From IMG/VR virus record IMGVR_UViG_3300046733_000230, positions 1 through 25,093 of that record: a stretch of DNA of 25,093 nt. One strand, written 5' to 3'. The notes beneath the pieces are model-generated. The model ran no database searches. It had not been told where the DNA came from and worked only from the letters and a program-made list of their open reading frames with translations. Source of the DNA: a virus. The first letter of the stretch is position 1; every line of letters begins with the position of its first letter. The position numbers and the translations under genes were made by a program. Below are positions 3,265-25,093 of this stretch, one piece after another.

Positions 3265-4011
3265 TTATACTCCGTATATATTTCTTTCTTGTAATTCTGT
3301 TTTTAATTTTTGTGCCCAAAAAGTGTGACCAGTTTCGTTAGAATGTCCGCCACTCATTTGTACACCCTGTTTTAAATGTTTGGGTGTCATAATATAACTC
3401 CAATAATCGTCTTCTAGATAGTTATTATGATTTATATTATTCAAAAAATCCTGATCTATTTTATTGGTACCGTCCCATAATTTTACATCATCGTCGCCAC
3501 TAAGTGCCGCCGCATTTCGTGTATTTCCCATTACATCAAACATAATATACGGTACGTTGTAACGTTCGCATAATACTTGGCACGAATACATCGATCTATA
3601 TTTTTGTGCTAGTAAATCGTCTGCTGTAACAATTGGTAGTATATGTTTATAACGTTCTATATCATGTTCGTCAGTTTGAGTAGGATCATACCAAGATGTT
3701 AAAACTGCGTATTCATAATTGCTGTTTTCATTAATCTCTGTACAATACTCAAATCTACCTAAAGTTGTCCACCCTATAACGACTAAGTCAGGACCTGGAT
3801 TATTGCTTACAAAATATTCAAATAATTTCCTTTCGGTTCGCATATTGCTACCACCCGATTTACCTAAGTTGACTACGTTGTCAAACTCTAGTATATCGCC
3901 TAGTTTTTGCGGATATGCATATTGAACATTTTCTTCATCATACAATCTACCCTCACCGATTATTTCGGCGCCGAATGTGTGACTGTCTCCGATTGCTAAT
4001 AATGTTTTCAT
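3265..4011 (-). CDS. SGNH/GDSL hydrolase-like protein
   Basis: This 248-aa protein has the block order of SGNH-fold esterases. Block I is GDSH at residues 8-11 with the presumptive nucleophile Ser10. It is followed by a glycine block (NLGKSGGSN, about 48-56), a strand PDLVVIGWTT (74-83) where block III normally sits, and a C-terminal GGHSNETGH (221-229) matching block V. The residue three before His223 is Ser220 instead of the usual Asp, so the catalytic triad may be altered. No signal peptide is present, so a cytoplasmic or virion location is likelier than secretion. It sits between gp32 and uvsX, one base before uvsX, an odd place for an esterase. The substrate cannot be predicted; an acyl or carbohydrate ester is possible. 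Confidence 0.75.
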   Translation of the reverse strand: MKTLLAIGDSHTFGAEIIGEGRLYDEENVQYAYPQKLGDILEFDNVVNLGKSGGSNMRTERKLFEYFVSNNPGPDLVVIGWTTLGRFEYCTEINENSNYEYAVLTSWYDPTQTDEHDIERYKHILPIVTADDLLAQKYRSMYSCQVLCERYNVPYIMFDVMGNTRNAAALSGDDDVKLWDGTNKIDQDFLNNINHNNYLEDDYWSYIMTPKHLKQGVQMSGGHSNETGHTFWAQKLKTELQERNIYGV

Positions 4012-6548: not shown

Positions 6549-8117
6549 TTATAAAACTCCTATAGGCAACGGACCATTCCAGTCGTCATCGTCATCTACA
6601 CTTGTTTCTATTTCATTATATACTGCGTCTTCGTATTGTGCTATATATGTAATCATTCTTACAGATACTAGAGTAGCCATTACTAAGTCATCGCTACCCC
6701 CTGGTTTTGCCGCAAATGTTGTGCCACGTGCTACAAACTCTTTTAATTCTCTAATTATGTTTTTACTACGCAATTTAAGTTTACCGTTTTCTATTAAACG
6801 TTTCATTGCTAATGCGCCTTCCATTTTATTTTTATGATGGGTATGAAAGCCTTTACGTCCTTTCTTGCCTTGAACTTTATTTGGCTCATGTAAGAATGTA
6901 CCTGGAAAACTTTCTTCGCCTGTGTCTCTGATGACCACAAGTGCCGCTTCGCCAATAGTATTATTCTCTACTGTCCAATATATATCGTTAGCACCATAAC
7001 TTTTTATTTCTTTTGCTATTTCCCTCAGCAGTTTAACCTGTCCTTCAATAGGTGTCTTATTGTGTTGCCACTCGCATACTTGATTCATCGTAGGTAAATC
7101 ATAACACACAATAGCCGCATTATCTCCACCTGTTCCTGTACTAGGATCAAGTGTAATTGCGTATATTTTTTTAGGATCTATCTTTTCATACCAACGTATT
7201 TGTCCACTACGTCTAATTGGGTCAACACCTTTCATGTCAACTAATTTAAGAGAGTCAATAAGTGTTTCGTCGTATATGATAAATTCGCATTCGTGTTCAC
7301 GCCTAAATCTTTCTTCGCCAATTCTACTACGTTCTGCTTTTGCCCAAAGTTCATCTCTGTCTGGGTGCTCTTGCCAATTAACACGGAATGCTTTGAATCC
7401 ATTTGTTCCTACATCTGTTTCCTCACCAAATTCATCGACTTGCTGTATTGCTTGGTGCCAAATATTAGCAAACGTGTCGTCGTCACTGTTTGGTGTGCTT
7501 GTTACAATACACTTACCGCCTGTACTTAGTGTTGGCGATAGTGCTGTCCAAAACTCAACAGCAATACGAGGCGGTACAAACGCAAACTCGTCTAAGTATA
7601 CTAATGACAAGGACATACCACGTCCAGTGTTTTCAGTTGTTGTAGCACTTACTATTCTGCTACCGTTATCAAAACTTAAACTACCTTTGTTGTATTCTGT
7701 TACACCTGCCCTTATATGATCAGGTACACTTTCATATGCGTATCTAATACGTTGCATAATTTCCTGTGCGCCTGTGTGCTTATGTGCCGCTACAAGTATT
7801 GTGCTGTCAGCGACAAACATAGCATACCAAAGTAAGTATGCGGCCGCACATGTTGTTTTACCTGTCTGTCTAGGCAACATGTTAATACTGTAACGATATT
7901 GGGAGTAGGTGTGAATTAACCTTTCCTGAAATTCAAAAGGTTCAAACTTGATTCCGCCTTTTGTTGGATGCTGAATCTTTACAAAATGTTCCATAAAGTA
8001 TGCTGGACCAGTGAGAGGGTCCATACAGTTGGAAATTTGTTCTATGTGGTCTTCGGTAAACGTTTGCTTTGCAAATGCTTTCTTCGTAAGACTAAAATCC
8101 TGCGTTCCTTGTGGCAT
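6549..8117 (-). CDS. 17: Terminase large subunit gp17
   Basis: This 522-aa packaging motor (T4 gp17 has 610) pumps DNA into the prohead and cuts the concatemer. The ATPase part shows Walker A RQTGKTT (83-89), Walker B with catalytic Glu LVYLDE (172-177) and the coupling motif STP (207-209). The C-terminal RNase H-like nuclease carries D324 in ITLDPSTGTGGDNAA, E384 in WTVENN and the D476-D477 pair in GGSDDLVMA. All the key residues expected of an active enzyme are present. The start is ATG 8117, five bases after a perfect TATAAATA. Small subunit gp16 lies two genes upstream. Confidence 0.97.
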   Translation of the reverse strand: MPQGTQDFSLTKKAFAKQTFTEDHIEQISNCMDPLTGPAYFMEHFVKIQHPTKGGIKFEPFEFQERLIHTYSQYRYSINMLPRQTGKTTCAAAYLLWYAMFVADSTILVAAHKHTGAQEIMQRIRYAYESVPDHIRAGVTEYNKGSLSFDNGSRIVSATTTENTGRGMSLSLVYLDEFAFVPPRIAVEFWTALSPTLSTGGKCIVTSTPNSDDDTFANIWHQAIQQVDEFGEETDVGTNGFKAFRVNWQEHPDRDELWAKAERSRIGEERFRREHECEFIIYDETLIDSLKLVDMKGVDPIRRSGQIRWYEKIDPKKIYAITLDPSTGTGGDNAAIVCYDLPTMNQVCEWQHNKTPIEGQVKLLREIAKEIKSYGANDIYWTVENNTIGEAALVVIRDTGEESFPGTFLHEPNKVQGKKGRKGFHTHHKNKMEGALAMKRLIENGKLKLRSKNIIRELKEFVARGTTFAAKPGGSDDLVMATLVSVRMITYIAQYEDAVYNEIETSVDDDDDWNGPLPIGVL

Positions 8118-8122
8118 GCAGT

Positions 8123-8130
8123 TATTTATA
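8123..8130 (-). promoter_or_regulatory. Late promoter box TATAAATA, 5 bases from the terminase ATG
   Basis: The minus strand reads TATAAATA-ACTGC-ATG (8130 to 8115), an exact match to the T4 late consensus. The start codon coincides with the expected transcription start, and no AGGAG-like sequence is present. Confidence 0.8.
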
Positions 8131-8154
8131 TAGGTTTTGGGTTATAAAAAGTGT

Positions 8155-8607
8155 TTACAGGCTTTTGTAACGATTCATAAGAGCGTTTAATATCTCTTTC
8201 TTATCGCCACCAATGCTGTTGTAACCTTGATCACTTTGTGGTTTGAGGCTAATAACTTTCATTTTTGGTTCTTCGCTATCACACGGTGATTCTTCTTCAC
8301 TGTGATCGTGCCCTGGGCATTCACATTCTGAACCTGGCTCGCCGCAATCATCACAAGTTTCTTCTTGTTCTTCGTGATCGTGTGCTTCTGGTTCATCTGT
8401 ACCAATACCAGCAAGTTTAAGTATTTGATGTAATTCATCCATACTGTCTGCGTTTGCTGTAGTTGTTATAGAAGCATTGCCTTGCTTTTGAGTTTTACTA
8501 TAAGTAACTCTTTCTTCACTTGAATCGTCTTGTGCGCCTGGCATGCCATATGGTGCGGCATTATAGAACGCCTCCATAATACTTCTCATTTGATCTGAAT
8601 TATTCAT
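8155..8607 (-). CDS. Unknown acidic Cys/His-rich late protein upstream of the terminase
   Basis: This 150-aa protein is not recognised. Residues about 55-75 include a helix ADSMDELHQILKLAGI, a short motif seen in unnamed proteins of marine T4-like phages. Residues about 80-113 are very acidic and contain a cluster of cysteines and histidines (CDDCGEPGSECECPGHDH, then SPCD), which could bind zinc or iron as a small knuckle. The C-terminus is a basic helix, KKEILNALMNRYKSL. The start overlaps the previous stop as TAATG, so translation is coupled. Its place between gp16 and gp17 suggests packaging or head assembly. Confidence 0.85.
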   Translation of the reverse strand: MNNSDQMRSIMEAFYNAAPYGMPGAQDDSSEERVTYSKTQKQGNASITTTANADSMDELHQILKLAGIGTDEPEAHDHEEQEETCDDCGEPGSECECPGHDHSEEESPCDSEEPKMKVISLKPQSDQGYNSIGGDKKEILNALMNRYKSL

Positions 8608-9296
8608 TATTGGCTTACCGGTCCTTGATTAATATCATATGAATTACCTTGTACATTTGGCTTATGTGCTAAACCAACTGCGTCTGCTAATCCTTTAAGA
8701 TCGTCGCCCATTAAACTACTTTTTGTTGGATAGTTACGGAAGTAATCTGCGCCTTTTTCTGCTTTGATTTTCATAAGTTCAGCAATAAATTTTTCATTAA
8801 ATTCTTCGCCATATAAACCTAATTCGTCTAAGTCTAAAAATTCGTTTTCTGCTTCGTAATGAGTCTGGTCGTCTTTAAGTAATTCAGCATCGTCCATTGA
8901 TACTTCTCTGTCTTTATCAAACTCTTCTCTATTTCTAGTAACATTATCTTCTAACTGTCTAGGTCCTTCAGTAGGTTGAATAACAATTTTACTTGGATCA
9001 ATGCCTAAGTGTACTGCTACCCATACTTCTAAAAGTCTTTCGTTAATTGGGTATTGTAATGTAACATCACAACTGCTTACTTCTGTTGGTCCTTGGACGC
9101 CTTTATTTTTAAAATCTAATGGCTCTTCCTGAATAGGAGTTCTTTTGAATGAACTTACACTTTGAACACCGTACTTACCAAGCACGTTTTCAATAAATGA
9201 TGCGTCTTGAGATCCATAGTCTCCAGCAAGTTTGATTCTGTAACTGAATGATTTTGAAAAACTTTCAGCAATATATTCTTTAAATGTTTTAGCCAT
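8607..9296 (-). CDS. Unknown late protein between terminase subunits
   Basis: This 229-aa protein is not recognised. The N-terminal ~115 residues (SYRIKLAGDYGSQ through LLEVWVAVHLGID) look like a mixed alpha/beta domain. The middle, about 117-170, is charged and acidic, and the C-terminus ends in a glycine/proline-containing tail. There is no membrane segment. It begins at ATG 9296 with AGGAG 10 bases upstream and a late promoter box 23 bases upstream, inside the end of gp16. Late timing and location suggest a virion or packaging protein. Confidence 0.85.
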   Translation of the reverse strand: MAKTFKEYIAESFSKSFSYRIKLAGDYGSQDASFIENVLGKYGVQSVSSFKRTPIQEEPLDFKNKGVQGPTEVSSCDVTLQYPINERLLEVWVAVHLGIDPSKIVIQPTEGPRQLEDNVTRNREEFDKDREVSMDDAELLKDDQTHYEAENEFLDLDELGLYGEEFNEKFIAELMKIKAEKGADYFRNYPTKSSLMGDDLKGLADAVGLAHKPNVQGNSYDINQGPVSQ

Positions 9297-9318
9297 ATTA
9301 TATAATCTCCTAACGTAC

Positions 9319-9810
9319 TTATTTATCTTTCTTGTTTAAAAATTGGAGTAATTGATTTCTATCCATTACAGCACTAGACTCATCAGAACTTGTTGAACCA
9401 CCGTCCATTGCGTCTATACGCAATTTTTTAAGTTGTAAATCTATCATACGCAATTTTTTATCTACTTTGGCATTTTTGCTATCCATTGCTATTTGTAGCA
9501 TTTTTCCTGCTGTTTCAAATATTCTACCAGCATGTGCGTCTTGTACATTCATACCTAAACTCATTAACTCTTCGTAACTATTTAAGGCTCTGTCTGCTAT
9601 GTTTTCCATATCGCCGTCGTGCTTAACAACATCTTTTACCTGTGGTAATGCTGAATCAATTTTTTCTGCGTTAGTTAGTGCTGTTGTAACTGCTACTTCT
9701 GATGGTGCTGTAGCAGGTTCTATACCAACTTCAACTACCTCTTGCTGAGATAGTTCTTTTAATTCATCCATACTTGGAAGATTAAATTCTTGTTCTAGTT
9801 TTCGAGTCAT
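9319..9810 (-). CDS. 16: Terminase small subunit gp16
   Basis: This 163-aa protein is close in length to T4 gp16 (164 aa), which forms rings that regulate gp17 and recognise DNA. The central helical hairpin, about residues 66-135, is the conserved-looking part: a first helix with ADRALNSYEELMSLG, a turn, RIFETAGKMLQIAMDSKNAKVDKKLR, then a basic helix MIDLQLKKLRID. This two-helix layout matches gp16 oligomerisation coiled coils. Flanking ends are low complexity. The ATG lies 4 bases after the gp4 stop. The call rests on length, helix pattern and the neighbouring gp17 and gp4. Confidence 0.75.
   Translation of the reverse strand: MTRKLEQEFNLPSMDELKELSQQEVVEVGIEPATAPSEVAVTTALTNAEKIDSALPQVKDVVKHDGDMENIADRALNSYEELMSLGMNVQDAHAGRIFETAGKMLQIAMDSKNAKVDKKLRMIDLQLKKLRIDAMDGGSTSSDESSAVMDRNQLLQFLNKKDK
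9320..9327 (-). promoter_or_regulatory. Late promoter box GATAAATA for the 229-aa gene
   Basis: GATAAATA overlaps the last codons and stop of gp16 (GAT AAA TAA). It is followed by 23 bases containing AGGAG before the ATG at 9296. Here the transcript would have a normal short leader with a ribosome site. Confidence 0.6.
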
Positions 9811-9814
9811 ACAC

Positions 9815-10258
9815 TTACTTACCTTTACGTTTCTTAGTATTGGCGTATATGTGATTCTCGTTTAACACTCTAAAACGTATGCCTTTACGTTGACACCATT
9901 CGTTTGCCGCTGTCCACTTGGCCATGTTTATCATTACTTGAACTTTCTCTGCTTGTCCTCTTGCTTGTTCCATAGTTGTTTGACTACCAGGTTTTATCTC
10001 AATCACTTCCATGTGTCGTTTGCCGGTCTTATCTGTATACAGAACTGTAAAGTCAGGTACATAAACTGTGTGCTTACCTGATACCGGATGCCTGTAAGGT
10101 ATCTTAATATTCTCACTTGCCCATTGTGTGATGTTTGGATGATTGTCGCACATTTTCATAAATGCTAATTCCCAACTACTACGGTAATAGGGTCTTTTAG
10201 CACCTACATACTTTTGCGTATTTTCAGGGAGAAATGTTCCTTTAAGAAATTTTGACAT
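9815..10258 (-). CDS. 4: Head completion protein gp4 (TnsA-like nuclease fold)
   Basis: This 147-aa protein, close to T4 gp4 (about 150 aa), finishes filled heads before tail joining. The visible pattern is YRSSWELAFMKMCDNHPNI (about 25-43), IPYRHPVSGKHTVYVPDF with Asp69, then EVIEIKPG with Glu87 and Lys89. E-x(n)-D-x(n)-E-x-K is the metal-nuclease layout of the TnsA-like fold attributed to this family. ATG 10258 is chosen over TTG 10264 because AAGGAG lies 6 bases before it. The junction with the upstream stop is TGATAATG. A Lys-rich tail (KKRKGK) closes the protein. Confidence 0.88.
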   Translation of the reverse strand: MSKFLKGTFLPENTQKYVGAKRPYYRSSWELAFMKMCDNHPNITQWASENIKIPYRHPVSGKHTVYVPDFTVLYTDKTGKRHMEVIEIKPGSQTTMEQARGQAEKVQVMINMAKWTAANEWCQRKGIRFRVLNENHIYANTKKRKGK

Positions 10259-18615: not shown

Positions 18616-19689
18616 ATGCCAAGAATAAGTTTATGGAATCCAGTTAAAAGAAACGACTACAAGTTTGTAGACGGTATTGTTGCGGAAAGTATATACGCAG
18701 GCGGTACTGGTGTGAATGTTCACAAATACCTAGGTGTACACAGCCAAGGAGACACAAACGACTTCACACAGCCACTAGAAGAAAATAATTATGGTTCAGA
18801 CGGAGACCAAAGAACAGGCGAAACATTTATACAAGATGTTCTATTCTTAGAAAATAGAGATAGAAAGTATAGCGACGATATTTATGAATTGCGTGGAGCA
18901 TATAATGTTGGTGATAACGACTTTGATCTAACGCAATTTGGTATGTTCCTATCTAACGATACACTTTTTATGAACTTCCATATTGAAACAATGGTATCTA
19001 CTATAGGTAGAAAATTAATGGCAGGCGATGTTATAGAATTACCGCATTTACGAGATGATTTATTACTAGATGAACGCAAAGATGCTGTTAACCGATTCTA
19101 TGTTGTAACAGATGCCAGTAGGCCAGCCGATGGATTTGATCCAAATTGGTGGCCTCATATGTGGAGATGTAAGTTAGGCCCAATATCCGACTCACAAGAG
19201 TACAGAGATATTATTGGGTATGGTGACGAAGAAGACGATTTACGAAATGTTATTAGTACATACAAAGACGAAATCGATATATCTGATGCTATTGTACAAC
19301 AAGCAGAAAATAATGTACCAAACGATCCGTACTTTGCCGAAGGCGCTCATTTATTTGTAGATGAAAATGCTAAAGGTAAGCCATTTATAGGCACAATAGA
19401 AGGTGCGCCAAATGGTGCTACATTGTTAGGTAGCGGTATTTCGTTTCCATTATCATCAGCAGAAGGCGATTATTTTTTAAGAACAGATTTTAATCCTAGT
19501 AGAATATTTAAAAAGCAAGGTACTCGATGGGTTAAAGTAGCAGACGATAACAAAAGAGTGTTCTCTAGTGCTAATAGAATCCTAGATGGATTCATAAATA
19601 ATACCACACAAACGACAAATACTGATGAATCTTCATCCGATGAGAGAACGTATGTTAGTAAAATCGTTAAACCAAAAACGGATAATTAA
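18616..19689 (+). CDS. 14: Neck protein gp14
   Basis: This 357-aa protein (T4 gp14 has 256) is the head-tail connector partner of gp13. The diagnostic region is residues about 103-162: FDLTQFGMFLSNDTLFMNF, ETMVSTIGRKLMAGDVIELPHLRDD and AVNRFYVVTDASR, followed by WWPHMWRCKLGPISDSQEY. The C-terminal extension carries one copy of the G-D-x-F-x-x-D ... I-F-K ... W-V-K repeat (283-310), like the units in the sheath. The tail is Ser/Thr/Asn-rich. It is the first plus-strand gene after the strand switch and is followed by gp15 after 2 bases. Confidence 0.88.
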   Translation: MPRISLWNPVKRNDYKFVDGIVAESIYAGGTGVNVHKYLGVHSQGDTNDFTQPLEENNYGSDGDQRTGETFIQDVLFLENRDRKYSDDIYELRGAYNVGDNDFDLTQFGMFLSNDTLFMNFHIETMVSTIGRKLMAGDVIELPHLRDDLLLDERKDAVNRFYVVTDASRPADGFDPNWWPHMWRCKLGPISDSQEYRDIIGYGDEEDDLRNVISTYKDEIDISDAIVQQAENNVPNDPYFAEGAHLFVDENAKGKPFIGTIEGAPNGATLLGSGISFPLSSAEGDYFLRTDFNPSRIFKKQGTRWVKVADDNKRVFSSANRILDGFINNTTQTTNTDESSSDERTYVSKIVKPKTDN

Positions 19690-19691
19690 TA

Positions 19692-21050
19692 ATGCAGTAC
19701 TGGTATGATGAACAAGTTAGACGGTATATTCTACAATTTATAAGAATATTTCATGCTTTTAAGGTAGCAGAAGGCGGACGCAATGGTGAAGATATTAGAT
19801 ATAATACTGTTCCTGTGCGATATGCTGATCCAAGCAGAATGGTTTCTCATTTACTTAGAGAAAATTCAGAAAACGTAATTAACAGCACACCTTTTATGGG
19901 TGTAAGCATTGCTAGTTTACAATTGGCTAGGGATAGAACACAAGATCCGTTCTTCACAGATACAAAAAGTGTGTCAGAGCGTAAGTTTAATAACGACACA
20001 CAGACCTATAGTGCCGAACAAGGCAATCAATATACTATTAATAGGTATATGCCTGTTCCTTTTAATCTAAGTATGCAAGTGGATATTTGGACACCTAATA
20101 CTGATACTAAATTACAGTTAATGGAACAAATATTAGTATTATTTAATCCTACCATACAGTTACAGCAAAACACTAATCCGTTTGATTGGACGCAGATTGT
20201 AGAAGTAGAGTTAACCGATATACAGTTTAATAATAGAACATTGCCGCAAGGTGTCGATGAGAATATCGACGTTTCAACATTAACGTTTCAGTTGCCTATT
20301 TGGATTAATCCACCTGCTAAAGTTAAACGCCAGAGTATTATACACGAAATTCAAACAAATGTATTTGCTGATTTTGATGGTCAAAATCTTACTGACTTAG
20401 GATATGATGATGACATTTATGATTTCTTTAGAAATTTTGATCTAACATCTAGAGTAATTGTTACTCCAGGTAATTTTAAAATTCAAGTTATTGACGGTGC
20501 TGTAACCCTATATGATTCCGCTGGTATAAATACCATGAAATGGAAAGACCTGCTAGAATCGTATGATAAGAATTTAAAGGACAATGTTAGTTTATTAAAA
20601 TTAAAATTAATAGATGACCTGGATGACGATACGCAAGATGTAGCAGGAACTATAGCAGTTAATCCTTTAGACGATACACAACTCATATTTACATTAGACG
20701 CCGACACACTTCCGATATCAACGATAGGTGATGTAGCAAAAATTATTGATCCTACAAAAAATACCCCAGGAGATAATACGTTGCCTGCTTTAGAGTATGG
20801 TCAACGTTACTTAATTACAGAAGATTTAGGTTCAGGTTATTTAGGATGGAACGTTTCTGCTTCGGCAAACGATATTATTGAGTACGGCAGTGATGGTTGG
20901 TTTGTATCATTTGATGCTTCAGCCAAGTCTGATACTGTTGCAACCAGTAAGAACTTAAATACTAATAAAGTTTATAGGTGGACAGGAAAACAATGGATGA
21001 GCATTTACGAGGGCGAGTACAATCCGGGGTATTGGACTCTAGTCCTATAG
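19692..21050 (+). CDS. 15: Tail sheath stabiliser / tail completion protein gp15
   Basis: This 452-aa protein is much longer than T4 gp15 (272 aa), which caps the tail and joins it to the neck. The N-terminal ~220 residues follow the gp15 pattern: YWYDEQVRRYILQFIRIFHAF, a strand NTVPVRYADPSRM, then NRYMPVPFNLSMQVDIWTPNTD and KLQLMEQILVLFNPTIQLQ, ending with FQLPIWINPP. The extra C-terminal ~180 residues are acidic and end in a beta hairpin, KVYRWTGKQWMSIYEG, like the sheath repeat. The start is 2 bases after the gp14 stop and has no clear ribosome site. The 3' end overlaps the Nudix gene by 58 bases. Confidence 0.85.
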   Translation: MQYWYDEQVRRYILQFIRIFHAFKVAEGGRNGEDIRYNTVPVRYADPSRMVSHLLRENSENVINSTPFMGVSIASLQLARDRTQDPFFTDTKSVSERKFNNDTQTYSAEQGNQYTINRYMPVPFNLSMQVDIWTPNTDTKLQLMEQILVLFNPTIQLQQNTNPFDWTQIVEVELTDIQFNNRTLPQGVDENIDVSTLTFQLPIWINPPAKVKRQSIIHEIQTNVFADFDGQNLTDLGYDDDIYDFFRNFDLTSRVIVTPGNFKIQVIDGAVTLYDSAGINTMKWKDLLESYDKNLKDNVSLLKLKLIDDLDDDTQDVAGTIAVNPLDDTQLIFTLDADTLPISTIGDVAKIIDPTKNTPGDNTLPALEYGQRYLITEDLGSGYLGWNVSASANDIIEYGSDGWFVSFDASAKSDTVATSKNLNTNKVYRWTGKQWMSIYEGEYNPGYWTLVL

Positions 21051-21508
21051 ACCCATTTACAGGCATTACAGGTGTCGGTACATTGTTTTTATCACTAAAA
21101 ACCAACAGAGTACTACTACAGTTTAGAAACAGCGACAAACGACAAAAACACACTTGGGGATTTTGGGGCGGCATTATTGAAGCCGGCGAGTCACCGTACG
21201 AAGCACTTATTAGAGAAGTACAAGAAGAGTTGGGAATAGTACCTGATATTAATAAACTTAATCCAATAGATGTGTATCAAAGCAAAGACAGAAATTTTAT
21301 GTATTATAGTTTTGTAGCAGTAATTGAAGACGAGTTTTTACCTACATTAAACAGCGAAAGTTGTGGTTATGCGTGGGTAAACATAGGTAATTGGCCAAAG
21401 CCATTACACGAAGGTGCTAGAGCAACTTTACTTTATAATAAAGGAAAAGATAAATTACAAACTATATTGGAGTTGCATAAACAAAATGTCGGATATAATA
21501 GACTTTAG
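20993..21508 (+). CDS. Nudix hydrolase
   Basis: This 171-aa protein hydrolyses a nucleoside diphosphate linked to another group. The Nudix box GGIIEAGESPYEALIREVQEELG is complete (about residues 59-81): G-x5-E-x7-R-E-x2-E-E-x-G, with all metal-binding glutamates present. ATG 20993 is preferred over GTG 20978 because AGGA lies 6 bases before it. The gene overlaps the end of gp15 by 58 bases and the next gene by 23 bases. The segment TWGFWGG and the lack of an extra domain do not fix the substrate; ADP-ribose, mutagenic dNTPs or NADH are possible. T4 itself has a Nudix enzyme, NudE, but this is not clearly the same. Confidence 0.93.
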   Translation: MDEHLRGRVQSGVLDSSPIDPFTGITGVGTLFLSLKTNRVLLQFRNSDKRQKHTWGFWGGIIEAGESPYEALIREVQEELGIVPDINKLNPIDVYQSKDRNFMYYSFVAVIEDEFLPTLNSESCGYAWVNIGNWPKPLHEGARATLLYNKGKDKLQTILELHKQNVGYNRL

Positions 21509-22109
21509 ATATGTTAGATTTGAAACACTATTAATTAAATTTGCTAGAACAAATGAGATACCTAACGAGTTTATCGATGGTACAATGGATATCGAAGAAC
21601 TATCGGCAACTTATAAGAGTACGTTATCCGACTATCATAAAAAAATTCTTAATAAACTTAGACGCATACTAACAAGTAGAATAAAAAAAAGTTCTGATCA
21701 AGTTCTTGTTTCATTCATGGAAGAATACTATTATTTTTATACTAATCAATGTACCAAGGAAAAGAAATGGTATCATGAAATTGTTATGTCTAAATATAGG
21801 AAAAATCTAAATCCTATAAGAGCGTTATATTATGAAATACTTAATATAATGAGTGCCTATAATCCGCAGTCAGAAGTACATCAATTTGTTGTAGATTTAT
21901 TTTCTGATGCCGAATGGCGCAACTCTATTGTAAGATGTATATCAAAAGATATAAGAGTGATTGATAAAATTACATCAACATATAATTATCCATTAAACAA
22001 AATAGGGGATAAGCCGTTTGAATTTTTATACCTTGTAGAACTAAAGAAAGATTTGACTTCTGCTAGAGGTGTGTTTAGAGCAATGGCGCACTGGTCACCG
22101 GACGAATAA
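21486..22109 (+). CDS. Unknown helical protein
   Basis: This 207-aa protein starts at ATG 21486 (MSDIIDFRYVRF) and overlaps the Nudix gene by 23 bases. GGAG lies 13 bases upstream, so initiation may rely on coupling. It is almost wholly helical, basic and rich in Tyr/Ile/Lys, with segments KKILNKLRRILTSRIKKSS, VSFMEEYYYFYTNQ and LYYEILNIMSAY. No domain is recognised. Helical character recalls helicase loaders such as gp59, but no specific motif supports that. It meets the oppositely directed oxygenase-like gene with a 15-base 3' overlap. Confidence 0.75.
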   Translation: MSDIIDFRYVRFETLLIKFARTNEIPNEFIDGTMDIEELSATYKSTLSDYHKKILNKLRRILTSRIKKSSDQVLVSFMEEYYYFYTNQCTKEKKWYHEIVMSKYRKNLNPIRALYYEILNIMSAYNPQSEVHQFVVDLFSDAEWRNSIVRCISKDIRVIDKITSTYNYPLNKIGDKPFEFLYLVELKKDLTSARGVFRAMAHWSPDE

Positions 22110-22619
22110 TTGCTGTACGCCTGTGTTAGGCATAATTAAGTCTTGTTGATCTGTTATATCAAATCCTATGGTTATCCGTGGTTGGTCTGTTCTATCACAT
22201 AATACTTTATGTTTTAGATACCCTGGGCCAATGTAAATATTACCAATTAAATTATCTATTTTAAAATCTTCAAATTGTGTCTTGCTGTTTAATGGATCTA
22301 TACTTATATATCCGTGATACGGCCATTCGTGTGTATGCCAGTCTAGTAATTGATGTTCCATGTGGTAATTTAGCCAACTCTGATAACATAAATCTTTATC
22401 GTTGCCAATAAAGTCTACAGCACACTCTCTTAATTCTTTATATAATTCTGTCCATATGCGTTTTGGCGAAGCATATGAAAATATATTATACTGGCCGTAT
22501 GCCCAAGTAGTATCAATTGTTTTTAAATTTTTTGCTATATTTTTAAATATTATACCGCAATCCTTGACAAATTCCTCATGGTTATCTATCACTGTTTGCG
22601 ATTTATAAATCTTATACAT
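22095..22619 (-). CDS. 2-oxoglutarate/Fe(II) oxygenase-like protein
   Basis: This 174-aa protein has the spacing of a small double-stranded beta-helix oxygenase. A metal-site segment DWHTHEWPYHGYISID lies at about 93-108, the distal His137 in GPGYLKHKV, and R148-I-T-I-G-F-D as the 2-oxoglutarate-binding arginine strand. The first metal motif reads H-T-H rather than the usual H-x-D/E, so metal binding could be altered. Such oxygenases are common in marine T4-like phages and are thought to modify proteins, nucleic acids or surfaces; the substrate here is unknown. It starts 4 bases after the cyclase stop and is the last gene of that cassette. Confidence 0.65.
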   Translation of the reverse strand: MYKIYKSQTVIDNHEEFVKDCGIIFKNIAKNLKTIDTTWAYGQYNIFSYASPKRIWTELYKELRECAVDFIGNDKDLCYQSWLNYHMEHQLLDWHTHEWPYHGYISIDPLNSKTQFEDFKIDNLIGNIYIGPGYLKHKVLCDRTDQPRITIGFDITDQQDLIMPNTGVQQLFVR

Positions 22620-22623
22620 GCTG

Positions 22624-24489
22624 TTACTTATAAAGTTTTCTTACTTCGCCGTTAAACAATGGTGCGTAAATCTTAACAGGTTCTTCCTTACCTTTAACTG
22701 TAACTTCTCCCATTTTACCAAATGCTATATCATTACATTGTAGATATGTAAATTCAGAAACTAAAATAGGTGTATCTTCCTGCCTTGTTTGTGCTTCTAA
22801 TCTAGCACCTAAGTTTACAGCATCGCCTACAACACTATAATCTAATCTAGTTTCAGCACCCATGTTACCAACAATACATGTACCTGTGTTTACACCTGTG
22901 CCAAATTTCACTCTTGGTAAGCCACGTTCTTCCATTTCTTTTTCTAGTTCGTCGCCAAGCAGTTCAATTTCTATTGCTGTTTTAACTGCCATCTCAGCAT
23001 GGTTATCACAAGGTAATGGAGCATTCCAAAACGCCATGATACAGTCGCCCATGAACTTGTCTATGGTGCCACCATTCTTTAAAACTATCTTAGTCATTTT
23101 ATCTAAGAAGCCGTTAATTAATTCTACTAATCCTTCAGGATCATCTTCCTTCATATACTTTTCTGATATGGGTGTAAAGCCGACTATGTCAGCAAACATA
23201 AAACTCATTTCTTTTCTTTCGCCACCTAATTTCATTAAACTAGGGTCTTTAACTAACATATCAACATAGTCTGGGGATATGTAAGTACCAAACTGCCCTT
23301 TGATTTGTTGACGCAATTTGTATTGTTTATAGAAGTTATTAAATGCTGATTGTGTAAACACTAAAAAGCCACTTAGTACAGGATATGTAGCATCTAATAA
23401 TACTAATTTATTTTGATATAACCATACACTTCCGTATGCTTCGCCACCTAATATTAGCAGTGAAATAGGTGCTGTCCACAGTAAAGGTAACTTATACACC
23501 GCTAAGGCTATTAAAATCATGCCACACAACGCACACAGAAGTTCTATAAGCGACGATAACTGGTTACGGGTGATGTTACTACCATCTATAAAGTTTTGTA
23601 GCATGTGTGCTTGTATATGCTGTGGATAGAGGTTGCCTCTTGGTGTGGGCACAGGGTTAGCGATTCCCTCTGCTGTAACACCAACTATAACAAACTTTCC
23701 TCCCATGTTAGGTAAACTGTTTATGTCAGTGTATTCTACTTCTTCAAATGTGTTGTTGTAACGTATATACGCATCGCCTTTTGGTAATGTTACTATTGGT
23801 TCAAATGGTGGTACAGCAAATTCGTTAATACCTATTTCTGTTGTTTTAATTATGTAACTGGGTTTACCTGTTTGTGCTCTTAACATTTCTATAGCAAACG
23901 AAGGATATATTTTTCCTTCTACGCCTATTGCTAATGGGTATGTTCTTGTTACAAAATCAGGCTGTGGTGCTGACGCATTTACTCCTATGCCTAGTGCTTC
24001 TACTTCTAGTTCAGATATGTTTGTTACTAGGTTTGGCCACGTGAGGAGATAGTCCTGTGCTTTTGTAGGGCCGATCACTCCTGTACCAATGTGAGGACCT
24101 GTAGTCTTTATTCCTCTGGTAGACGGGGTCTGGCTTAAAACTATTCCGTTCCCCTTCAACCAACTTGCCAGTGTCGGATCTCCGCCGAACCTGTCCGTCT
24201 CCGGAAACATCACTGTAAGTCCAATTATACCTTGATTCTTCTGTCTCAAATCGTGAATCATCTGAGCAAAGTTTTGTCTTGGCCATGGCCATTGCCCCCA
24301 TTGTTGTAAACTTTTTTCACCTATATTAACAATAACAACTTCGTTGCTTTGTTTGATTTCGTCTAGTTGCTGATAAGCATCAAACGTTTGATTTCTTATA
24401 TTCTGTAGTGGCGTAGGATCTGATACTTTGAGTGCTGTGAGTAATAATATTGAAATTATTACAGCATAGCCACTGTATAACCATTTCAT
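22624..24489 (-). CDS. Membrane CHASE2-class III adenylate cyclase
   Basis: This 621-aa sensor enzyme makes cyclic AMP. An N-terminal membrane helix (residues 5-21) precedes an extracytoplasmic CHASE2-type sensor (about 30-305; IRNQTFDAY, VVIVNIGEKSLQQWGQWPWPR, NMGGKFVIVGVTAEG are characteristic). Three membrane helices follow (about 315-332, 335-357, 363-380), then a linker and the cyclase domain (about 425-610). The domain has metal aspartates D434 (FADIVGFT) and D482 (MGDCIMAFW), adenine-selecting K478 and D550 (DYSVVGD), and N559 and R563 (AVNLGARLE), so it should be active and ATP-specific. The start overlaps the SH3-like gene by ATGA. This domain set is bacterial in style and rare in a phage; the sensed signal is unknown. 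Confidence 0.93.
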   Translation of the reverse strand: MKWLYSGYAVIISILLLTALKVSDPTPLQNIRNQTFDAYQQLDEIKQSNEVVIVNIGEKSLQQWGQWPWPRQNFAQMIHDLRQKNQGIIGLTVMFPETDRFGGDPTLASWLKGNGIVLSQTPSTRGIKTTGPHIGTGVIGPTKAQDYLLTWPNLVTNISELEVEALGIGVNASAPQPDFVTRTYPLAIGVEGKIYPSFAIEMLRAQTGKPSYIIKTTEIGINEFAVPPFEPIVTLPKGDAYIRYNNTFEEVEYTDINSLPNMGGKFVIVGVTAEGIANPVPTPRGNLYPQHIQAHMLQNFIDGSNITRNQLSSLIELLCALCGMILIALAVYKLPLLWTAPISLLILGGEAYGSVWLYQNKLVLLDATYPVLSGFLVFTQSAFNNFYKQYKLRQQIKGQFGTYISPDYVDMLVKDPSLMKLGGERKEMSFMFADIVGFTPISEKYMKEDDPEGLVELINGFLDKMTKIVLKNGGTIDKFMGDCIMAFWNAPLPCDNHAEMAVKTAIEIELLGDELEKEMEERGLPRVKFGTGVNTGTCIVGNMGAETRLDYSVVGDAVNLGARLEAQTRQEDTPILVSEFTYLQCNDIAFGKMGEVTVKGKEEPVKIYAPLFNGEVRKLYK

Positions 24490-24734
24490 TCTTTAGGATA
24501 TCCTGCGTACCATTCTTGAATAGTATTTACTCGTACATCTCTCCATGCTTTTTTATCTAAAGCATAACATATTACTGTGTCTGGACTAGAATATTTTTCT
24601 ATGGTTACCTTTTGTTTGTGTAGATTTTTATTAAGTGTACACGGCATAGTTCTTATTTCGCCTGTATCTATTTTTTCAAATACTATTGTTACTACACCTT
24701 CAAATAGTGCTTTTATTAAATCGTTACTATTCAT
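24486..24734 (-). CDS. Small SH3/Sm-fold-like phage protein (DUF2693-like)
   Basis: This 82-aa protein begins MNSNDLIKALFEGVVTIVFEKIDTG. The alternating strands VVTIVFEK, IRTMPCTL, VICYALDKKAWR and VRVNTIQEWYAG resemble the small beta-barrel viral family formerly DUF2693 (WYL_2, Sm/SH3-like), common in T4-like phages and of unknown function. ATG 24734 is chosen over the upstream in-frame TTG (24737) because it forms a TGATG junction with the reductase stop. Its stop overlaps the cyclase ATG (ATGA). It links the reductase and cyclase genes into one translated unit. Confidence 0.75.
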   Translation of the reverse strand: MNSNDLIKALFEGVVTIVFEKIDTGEIRTMPCTLNKNLHKQKVTIEKYSSPDTVICYALDKKAWRDVRVNTIQEWYAGYPKE

Positions 24735-25093
24735 CAATCTACGAATGCTCTTTCTAACATAAAGTCTCCCATATCACCTGTGTTGCCTTCTGACCAGTTT
24801 AATGTCTTAAACATAGTTCGGCATTCTTTATTCATTTCTGGAGAACCGCACACCATTATGCCGTCTCTTTCTTTAAGGAATCCACTTGGCAAGAAATCTT
24901 CAACATATTGCCAAAAGCGGCCAGTTCTACCGAAATCCTCTCTTGTTACTGTAGGAATATATGTAAACGGTAAATCTTCTTCAATAGTATTTAGCGATTC
25001 TATGTATGCTAATTCGTTTACATTTCTTACGGTGTGAAACAAATATACAAAACCAAATCTTTCATAAGTTGCCGGGTCATGTGCTATACTTAT
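24734..25093 (-). CDS. Ferredoxin/flavodoxin-NADP+ reductase, 5' end cut off
   Basis: The frame is open to the right edge, giving 119 C-terminal residues of an FNR (Fpr-type, normally about 250 aa). The visible part starts ISIAHDPATYERFGFVYLFH, the segment after the NADP-binding glycine motif, followed by TVRNVNELAY, IPTVTRED and the signature VCGSPEMN. It ends with DFMLERAFVD, matching the E-R-A-F-V-E/D ending of bacterial Fpr, which stacks near FAD. The enzyme transfers electrons between NADPH and ferredoxin or flavodoxin. The FAD-binding half lies outside the window. Its stop overlaps the next start as TGATG, so it is cotranscribed with the cyclase. Confidence 0.92.
   Translation of the reverse strand: MSIAHDPATYERFGFVYLFHTVRNVNELAYIESLNTIEEDLPFTYIPTVTREDFGRTGRFWQYVEDFLPSGFLKERDGIMVCGSPEMNKECRTMFKTLNWSEGNTGDMGDFMLERAFVD

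What the first reader, a model, noticed from the sequence alone, without database searches (positions are those of the whole stretch)
22624..24489. A phage-encoded membrane CHASE2 adenylate cyclase with all catalytic residues
The protein combines an extracytoplasmic CHASE2 sensor, three membrane helices and a class III cyclase domain in which both metal aspartates, the K/D purine selectors and the N/R transition-state pair are all visible. T4 core genes lie on the same contig within 1.5 kb. A phage making a signal-sensing cAMP synthase would be able to reset host catabolite or stress signalling from the inner membrane. I know this architecture from bacteria, not as a standard phage gene.
Basis: partly seen in the sequence, partly recalled or inferred. 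Interest (0 to 1): 0.8.

Follow-up and report, generated by a model that had tools for sequence, protein, structure and literature searches.

The report
Phage curli-linked membrane adenylate cyclase
A marine T4-like phage really carries a complete membrane-bound cAMP-making sensor enzyme. It is a widespread and already published kind of phage gene that sits at the end of a phage-borne amyloid-fibre (curli) secretion cluster, and its sensor and enzyme halves have been repeatedly shuffled between phages.

Summary
ORF 22624-24489(-) encodes a 621-aa protein: one N-terminal helix, a periplasmic CHASE2 domain, three more helices and a class III cyclase domain. Two details are wrong: there are four membrane helices, and the purine pair is K478/S552 (class IIIb), not K/D. 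It is a genuine phage gene: at least 80 IMG/VR contigs encode it, nearly all beside the same nudix and gp15 genes, and cultured phages HTVC008M and Melnitz carry it.

The idea is not new. Wittmers et al. 2022 (PMC9599517) described adenylate cyclase plus FecR in phage curli (T8SS) clusters.

The window stops short of its own cluster. In close relatives the same array continues CsgG-curlin-FecR-curlin-...-reductase-WYL_2-cyclase, and all 10 contigs reaching at least 10 kb upstream carry CsgG.

Added here: FecR lies directly beside homologous CHASE2 cyclases in many bacteria, often inside giant RTX/cadherin surface adhesins. The sensor and catalytic halves have recombined repeatedly. Both are under purifying selection. 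None of 18 phage records searched encodes a cAMP-binding domain.

Best explanation: an envelope sensor coupled to FecR and the phage-made curli apparatus, signalling through host cAMP receptors. Enzyme identity is strong; the coupling is inferred.

The parts
22624..24489 (-). CHASE2 class IIIb adenylate cyclase, 621 aa
24421..24471 (-). membrane helix 1 (residues 7-23)
   Evidence: AlphaFold2 helix; hydrophobic segment 2-28
23512..24447 (-). CHASE2 domain by Pfam (residues 15-326); the ectodomain between helices 1 and 2 spans about residues 24-311
23287..23556 (-). membrane helices 2-4 (residues 312-401), the last running on towards the cyclase; recombination breaks lie near here
22681..23214 (-). 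class III catalytic domain (residues 426-603): metal Asp D434 and D482, K478, S552, N559, R563
24486..24737 (-). WYL_2 (Sm-like) small protein; its TGA overlaps the cyclase ATG (ATGA), suggesting translational coupling
24734..25093 (-). FAD/NAD oxidoreductase, 3' part only, cut by the contig end; overlaps WYL_2
   Evidence: full-length relative L021:5013-5753
22095..22619 (-). 2OG-Fe(II) oxygenase-like protein between cyclase and structural genes (phrog_2696); present in some relatives only
21414..22109 (+). conserved unknown protein 'x231', beside the cyclase in 81 of 85 loci
20978..21508 (+). nudix hydrolase, conserved neighbour
19692..21050 (+). gp15 tail sheath stabiliser, marks the locus as phage

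Best explanation
It is a phage-encoded transmembrane receptor adenylate cyclase, and the last gene of a phage curli (T8SS) operon. SHOWN by sequence: complete domains and catalytic residues, purifying selection on both halves, and conserved linkage to CsgG, curlin repeats and a FecR-domain protein in relatives. INFERRED: the protein sits in the inner membrane as a dimer, with CHASE2 in the periplasm. CHASE2 reads the state of the envelope or of the fibre export apparatus, probably through the FecR-domain protein. This changes the dimer through helices 2-4 and the coiled linker and turns the class IIIb catalytic domains on or off. The product is most likely cAMP (K478/S552). It is read by a host CRP-type receptor, because none of the phage records searched encodes a cNMP-binding domain. 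The infected cell's regulation is thereby matched to whether the phage-made surface structure is being exported.
For: Domain and residue evidence: (best solved catalytic homologues include P. aeruginosa CyaB and Spirulina CyaC, class IIIb adenylate cyclases). Cluster: HTVC008M and Melnitz have CsgF-CsgG-curlin-FecR-curlin-cyclase in a row. The window's near relatives have the same array with small genes, a reductase and WYL_2 in between. All 10 contigs with at least 10 kb upstream carry CsgG. Pfam confirms FecR, CsgG and a reductase in L021. Stop/start overlaps suggest an operon. The FecR partnership is older than the phages: FecR lies directly beside the homologous cyclase in 22 of 40 bacterial loci with full flanks, and 30 of 37 FecR hits are within 250 nt. 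In an independent draw 17 of 55 CHASE2 cyclases had it within 400 nt, mostly Myxococcota. Campylobacterota have the same pair (PMC9239204). S. meliloti cyaD1 lies next to FecR gene smc02177 and to clr, and the CHASE2-deleted CyaD1 is constitutive (PMC5498481). Selection: dN/dS 0.04-0.2 in both domains. No PF00027 in 18 records, including a 250-kb contig and two complete genomes.
Against: The window itself holds no curli or FecR gene; the contig ends at 25093, so the linkage is read from relatives. No direct FecR-CHASE2 contact is shown. In S. meliloti the FecR gene smc02177 was not required for sensing the plant signal tested (PMC5498481). Co-divergence of FecR and CHASE2 is weak (Mantel r 0.19, p 0.042, 13 loci). 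In Desulfobacterota most CHASE2 cyclases show no FecR in the short flanks seen. Host and host cAMP receptor are unknown. Enzyme activity has not been tested.
Confidence: 0.55

Rival explanations
1. An adenylate cyclase that raises host cAMP on its own account, as an auxiliary metabolic gene acting on host catabolite or stress genes; the curli cluster is only a travelling companion in a shared variable region.
For: Complete catalytic domain. Several unrelated genes lie between FecR and the cyclase in the window lineage. The catalytic domain recombines independently of FecR (Mantel 0.01).
Against: The ectodomain is under purifying selection and is retained in all 77 full-length homologues aligned. 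The FecR pair recurs in bacteria. The linkage to curli is kept across distinct phage lineages.
Confidence: 0.25
2. Feedback control of the curli cluster: cyclase and FecR regulate expression or assembly of the phage T8SS genes themselves through host CRP, by analogy with cAMP control of csgD in enterobacteria (proposed by Wittmers et al. 2022).
For: Same operon and orientation; the published analogy (PMC9599517).
Against: The cyclase is encoded last in the operon it would control. No CsgD homologue is known in these phages (PMC9599517). No CRP-site analysis was made here.
Confidence: 0.15
3. A cyclic-pyrimidine (Pycsar-like) or other non-cAMP cyclase involved in defence against competing phages or in counter-defence.
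For: PADLOC PycC models hit the catalytic domain (best E 5.4e-22).
Against: These are hits at the level of the shared class III fold. K478 and S/T552 match CyaB/CyaC adenylate cyclases. Bacterial relatives are CHASE2 receptor cyclases in FecR loci. No Pycsar effector (TIR or membrane) was seen next to the gene.
Confidence: 0.04
4. Assembly chimera or host contamination.
For: The window is a 25-kb metagenomic fragment.
Against: The same junctions occur in dozens of independent contigs, and the gene is present in cultured phages.
Confidence: 0.01

Closest known systems
Pelagiphage T8SS/curli clusters with FecR and adenylate cyclase (Wittmers et al. 2022, PMC9599517; HTVC008M YP_007517885; Melnitz QZI95054)
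   Same: CHASE2-cyclase at the end of CsgF-CsgG-curlin-FecR-curlin; the phage catalytic domains form one clade (98/90), nested among mostly alphaproteobacterial homologues; Melnitz sits apart on a long branch, but membership is not rejected
   Different: Window protein is 42.5% and 34.5% identical to these. Its phage belongs to another T4-superfamily branch: terminase 58.8% to PA5oct-type jumbo phages, UvsX 66% to a Sinorhizobium jumbo phage. A lipoprotein-like gene, DUF5658-like gene, reductase and WYL_2 lie between FecR/curlin and cyclase in relatives
Bacterial FecR + CHASE2 receptor adenylate cyclase pairs (S. meliloti CyaD1; Campylobacterota cluster; Bradyrhizobium)
   Same: Same domain order, same catalytic residues, FecR gene alongside
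   Different: Bacterial proteins are longer (about 700-800 aa). The FecR partner is often a giant RTX/cadherin/Big adhesin rather than a curli-cluster protein. No CsgG, CsgF or curlin in the first set of bacterial loci and no CsgG in the second
Class IIIb adenylate cyclases CyaB (P. aeruginosa, 3r5g) and CyaC (Spirulina, 1wc0)
   Same: Catalytic fold, TM-score to target 0.83-0.89; K and S/T purine residues
   Different: The solved chains matched are catalytic domains, whereas the phage protein is membrane-bound behind a CHASE2 domain

Membership tests
CHASE2 receptor | CHASE2 domain after one N-terminal helix and followed by three helices | tested here: met
   Pfam PF05226 E 3.5e-38; helices 7-23, 312-333, 336-361, 368-401
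Class III adenylate cyclase | two metal Asp, transition-state Asn and Arg | tested here: met
   D434, D482, R563 in 77/77 and N559 in 76/77
Class IIIa (K/D purine pair) | Asp at the adenine-selecting position | tested here: not met
   S552; S 56, T 20, D 1 (Melnitz only)
Class IIIb (K with Thr/Ser) | Lys plus Thr/Ser at the purine site | tested here: met
   K478, S552; nearest solved catalytic relative CyaB has T in the aligned DYT motif
Adenylate cyclase (activity) | makes cAMP from ATP | not testable with these tools
   needs an enzyme assay
Phage T8SS-linked cyclase (Wittmers et al. 2022) | encoded in the CsgF-CsgG-curlin-FecR cluster | tested here: met
   Met in relatives: CsgG in 10/10 contigs with at least 10 kb upstream, FecR/curlin in L011, L021, L023, L028, L048. 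Not visible in the window, which ends first
Phage T8SS-linked cyclase (Wittmers et al. 2022) | monophyly of the phage cyclases | tested here: met
   catalytic domains of all phages but Melnitz in one clade 98/90; including Melnitz not rejected (AU p 0.615)
Pycsar PycC | pyrimidine cyclase next to a Pycsar effector | tested here: inconclusive
   PycC models hit the fold; purine-type K478 and no effector seen speak against; product untested

The most novel reading that the evidence does not exclude
FecR plus CHASE2-cyclase is a general, undescribed sensor of secreted surface matrix. In bacteria it is built into or beside giant adhesins, and in marine phages it is tied to curli, so that infected cells report fibre export to the host's cAMP circuit. 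Phages diversify this sensor by swapping ectodomains and catalytic cassettes at the membrane linker.
Probability: 0.3. Interest if true: 0.75.

Novelty: new member of a known kind. Interest (0 to 1): 0.5.

Why it matters
Phages are seldom credited with membrane receptors that make second messengers. This family is common in marine phage contigs and well conserved, so many infected ocean bacteria may have their cAMP signalling connected to a phage-built surface organelle. The FecR + CHASE2-cyclase pairing seen here in bacteria gives a concrete testable partner (FecR) for the phage enzyme. The swapped halves offer natural chimeras to test which signal and which output each carries.

Tried and rejected
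Chimera/contamination: rejected. Chance ORF: rejected. Phage-encoded cAMP receptor: not found in 18 records. Second cyclase gene in the phages: none, one PF00211 match per record in 10 records. Riboswitch or other known RNA in the window: none; the only hit in six sources was a tRNA in L038. Curli genes beside bacterial homologues: none of CsgG, CsgF or curlin in 80 loci, no CsgG in 60 more. FecR/CHASE2 co-evolution by distance matrices: weak and inconclusive. Acinetobacter 'phage' hit H7: a bacterial chromosome fragment under a phage name, discarded. Literature on a Pelagibacter cAMP receptor: nothing relevant.

Full report
OBSERVATION. The minus-strand ORF 22624-24489 is real: 621 aa, ATG, CHASE2 15-326 and Guanylate_cyc 426-603, full-length match to phrog_35576 (E 6.9e-175). 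The AlphaFold2 model (mean pLDDT 87.8; 63 sequences) shows one N-terminal membrane helix (7-23), an alpha/beta ectodomain, three helices (312-333, 336-361, 368-401) and the cyclase fold. Foldseek places the catalytic part on class IIIb adenylate cyclases CyaB and CyaC (TM-score to target 0.83-0.89) and on guanylyl cyclase Cya2. Aligning 77 full-length phage homologues gives D434, K478, D482 and R563 invariant and N559 in 76. The adenine-selecting position is S552 (S 56, T 20, D 1), so the pair is K/S(T), not K/D; 59 bacterial homologues show S 50, T 9. The single D and the single loss of N559 are both Melnitz.

IT IS A PHAGE GENE. tblastn in cultured phages finds HTVC008M (42.5%, 98% covered) and four Melnitz phages (34.5%). 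IMG/VR has at least 80 relatives, many above 90% identity. Gene-order analysis of these loci shows cyclase > x231 < nudix < gp15 in nearly all (81 of 85 loci have each of x231, nudix and gp15). Window neighbours are gp15, a gp14-like head protein, sheath, terminase, UvsX and SSB. The phage is not close to HTVC008M: sheath and terminase are closest to PA5oct-type jumbo phages (44%, 58.8%) and UvsX to a Sinorhizobium jumbo phage (66%). The cyclase was not found in PA5oct. One relative (L080) lies on a 250-kb contig, consistent with a large genome. The host is unknown.

CLUSTER. In HTVC008M and Melnitz the cyclase is last in CsgF-CsgG-curlin-FecR-curlin-cyclase; the HTVC008M 'hypothetical' gene in the FecR position is homologous to the Melnitz FecR protein. 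The window contig ends 604 bp upstream of the cyclase start, inside a reductase gene. In relatives with cyclases 73-93% identical (L011, L021, L023, L028, L048) the array continues with CsgG, curlin, FecR, curlin, mostly small membrane, lipoprotein-like and DUF5658-like genes, reductase, WYL_2 and cyclase, on one strand; the shorter of these contigs stop before CsgG. CsgG is present in all ten contigs with at least 10 kb upstream of the cyclase (L021, L028, L032, L035, L038, L046, L058, L072, L078, L080; positions, CsgG). The reductase/WYL_2/cyclase genes overlap at stop and start (ATGA), which suggests translational coupling.

PRIOR ART. Zaragoza-Solas et al. 2020 reported phage CsgF/CsgG (PMC7029224). 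Buchholz et al. 2022 proposed a lysis role for the pore and do not mention the cyclase (PMC9004378). Wittmers et al. 2022 reported FecR and adenylate cyclase in these clusters in podo- and myophages, with a tree and an alphaproteobacterial origin (PMC9599517). My tree agrees: all phage catalytic domains except Melnitz form one clade (98/90) nested among mostly alphaproteobacterial homologues; adding Melnitz is not rejected (AU p 0.615).

WHAT IS ADDED HERE. (1) FecR beside a CHASE2 cyclase is a bacterial pairing in its own right. In the 80 best bacterial loci, 30 of 37 FecR hits lie within 250 nt of the cyclase; of 40 loci with at least 6 kb on both sides, 27 have FecR and 22 have it adjacent. 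Many of these are Bradyrhizobium, so they are not independent. A separate draw by CHASE2 domain found FecR within 400 nt in 17 of 55 cyclases, common in Myxococcota and rare in Desulfobacterota, with only about 1.4 kb of upstream sequence seen. The pair is reported for Campylobacterota (PMC9239204) and is visible in S. meliloti at cyaD1/smc02177, where CHASE2-deleted CyaD1 is constitutive but smc02177 was not needed for the plant signal tested (PMC5498481). Six of the ten bacterial FecR partners scanned also carry RTX, cadherin, Big or similar adhesin domains. No curli genes were seen in the first set of bacterial loci and no CsgG in the second. Wittmers et al. [quoted passage not shown] that stands, but FecR and cyclase probably came as an older sensing pair (inference).

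(2) Sensor and enzyme halves are shuffled. Phage catalytic domains fall into a short type (like the window) and a long type (about 677-690 aa, C-terminal extension). Each is one side of a branch in the catalytic-domain tree (95/84 and 70/61), but the types are scattered in the CHASE2 tree, with at least 5 changes forced by well-supported branches; holding the long type together is rejected (AU p 8e-8). They are also not single clades in the gp15, x231 and nudix trees, with fewer changes. Nucleotide identity shows the breaks: L029 is 89-93% to L078 over residues 1-300 and 61-67% over the catalytic domain, while it is 59-80% then 94-96% to L011. L015 and L048 are 93% over residues 1-60, 43% over 61-120, 65-78% over 121-300 and 95-100% beyond 300. 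The window and its nearest relative L005 have dS 0.07 in CHASE2 but 0.46 in the catalytic domain. Some contigs are short and single chimeric assemblies are possible, but a group of similar contigs (L049-L055, 15 bases to 52 kb contexts differing) share one gene arrangement, and those in the trees share one mosaic type. (3) Both halves are under purifying selection (dN/dS 0.04-0.2). (4) No cNMP-binding protein in 18 phage records, including two complete genomes, and one cyclase per record in the 10 tested.

MECHANISM. Shown: architecture, residues, conservation, linkage in relatives. Inferred: inner-membrane dimer, CHASE2 as periplasmic input, FecR as intermediary to the curli apparatus, cAMP as product, host receptor as reader. 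About 0.85 that it makes cAMP; about 0.55 for the full coupled model.

VERDICT. It is a new member of a known kind in another phage branch, with an informative bacterial parallel and clear domain shuffling.

Noticed in passing
L015:42-1907 and L048:4953-6839: CHASE2 residues 61-300 appear to have been replaced (43% nucleotide identity at 61-120) between genes that are 95-100% identical from residue 301 on: ectodomain exchange.
   Followed up: partly
L032, L046, L047, L031, L041, L043: In these relatives a large gene (c68, up to about 1,087 aa) and a 144-aa gene (c69) lie directly upstream of the cyclase; not identified.
   Followed up: no
CAKLQH020000011.1 and CAKLQF020000009.1 (L003): Records named 'Acinetobacter phage MD-2021a': the one opened (L003) carries bacterial housekeeping genes (mfd, isc operon, hupB) and looks like a mislabelled chromosome fragment.
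   Followed up: partly
window 3265-4011 (-): 248-aa protein with a GDSH motif near the N-terminus, like GDSL/SGNH hydrolases, between UvsX and SSB; no PHROG or PADLOC hit.
   Followed up: no
window 24734-25093 and L021:5013-5753: Ferredoxin-NADP-reductase-like FAD/NAD oxidoreductase translationally overlapping the WYL_2 gene ahead of the cyclase; its role in the cluster is unclear.
   Followed up: no
L002 (Melnitz) 8001-10052: Melnitz cyclase has Ser for the transition-state Asn and Asp at the purine position, on a very long branch; it may be less active or altered.
   Followed up: partly
window 18616-22109 (+): Strand switch: this block of structural and nudix genes is on the plus strand, with opposite GC skew, between minus-strand blocks.
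   Followed up: no
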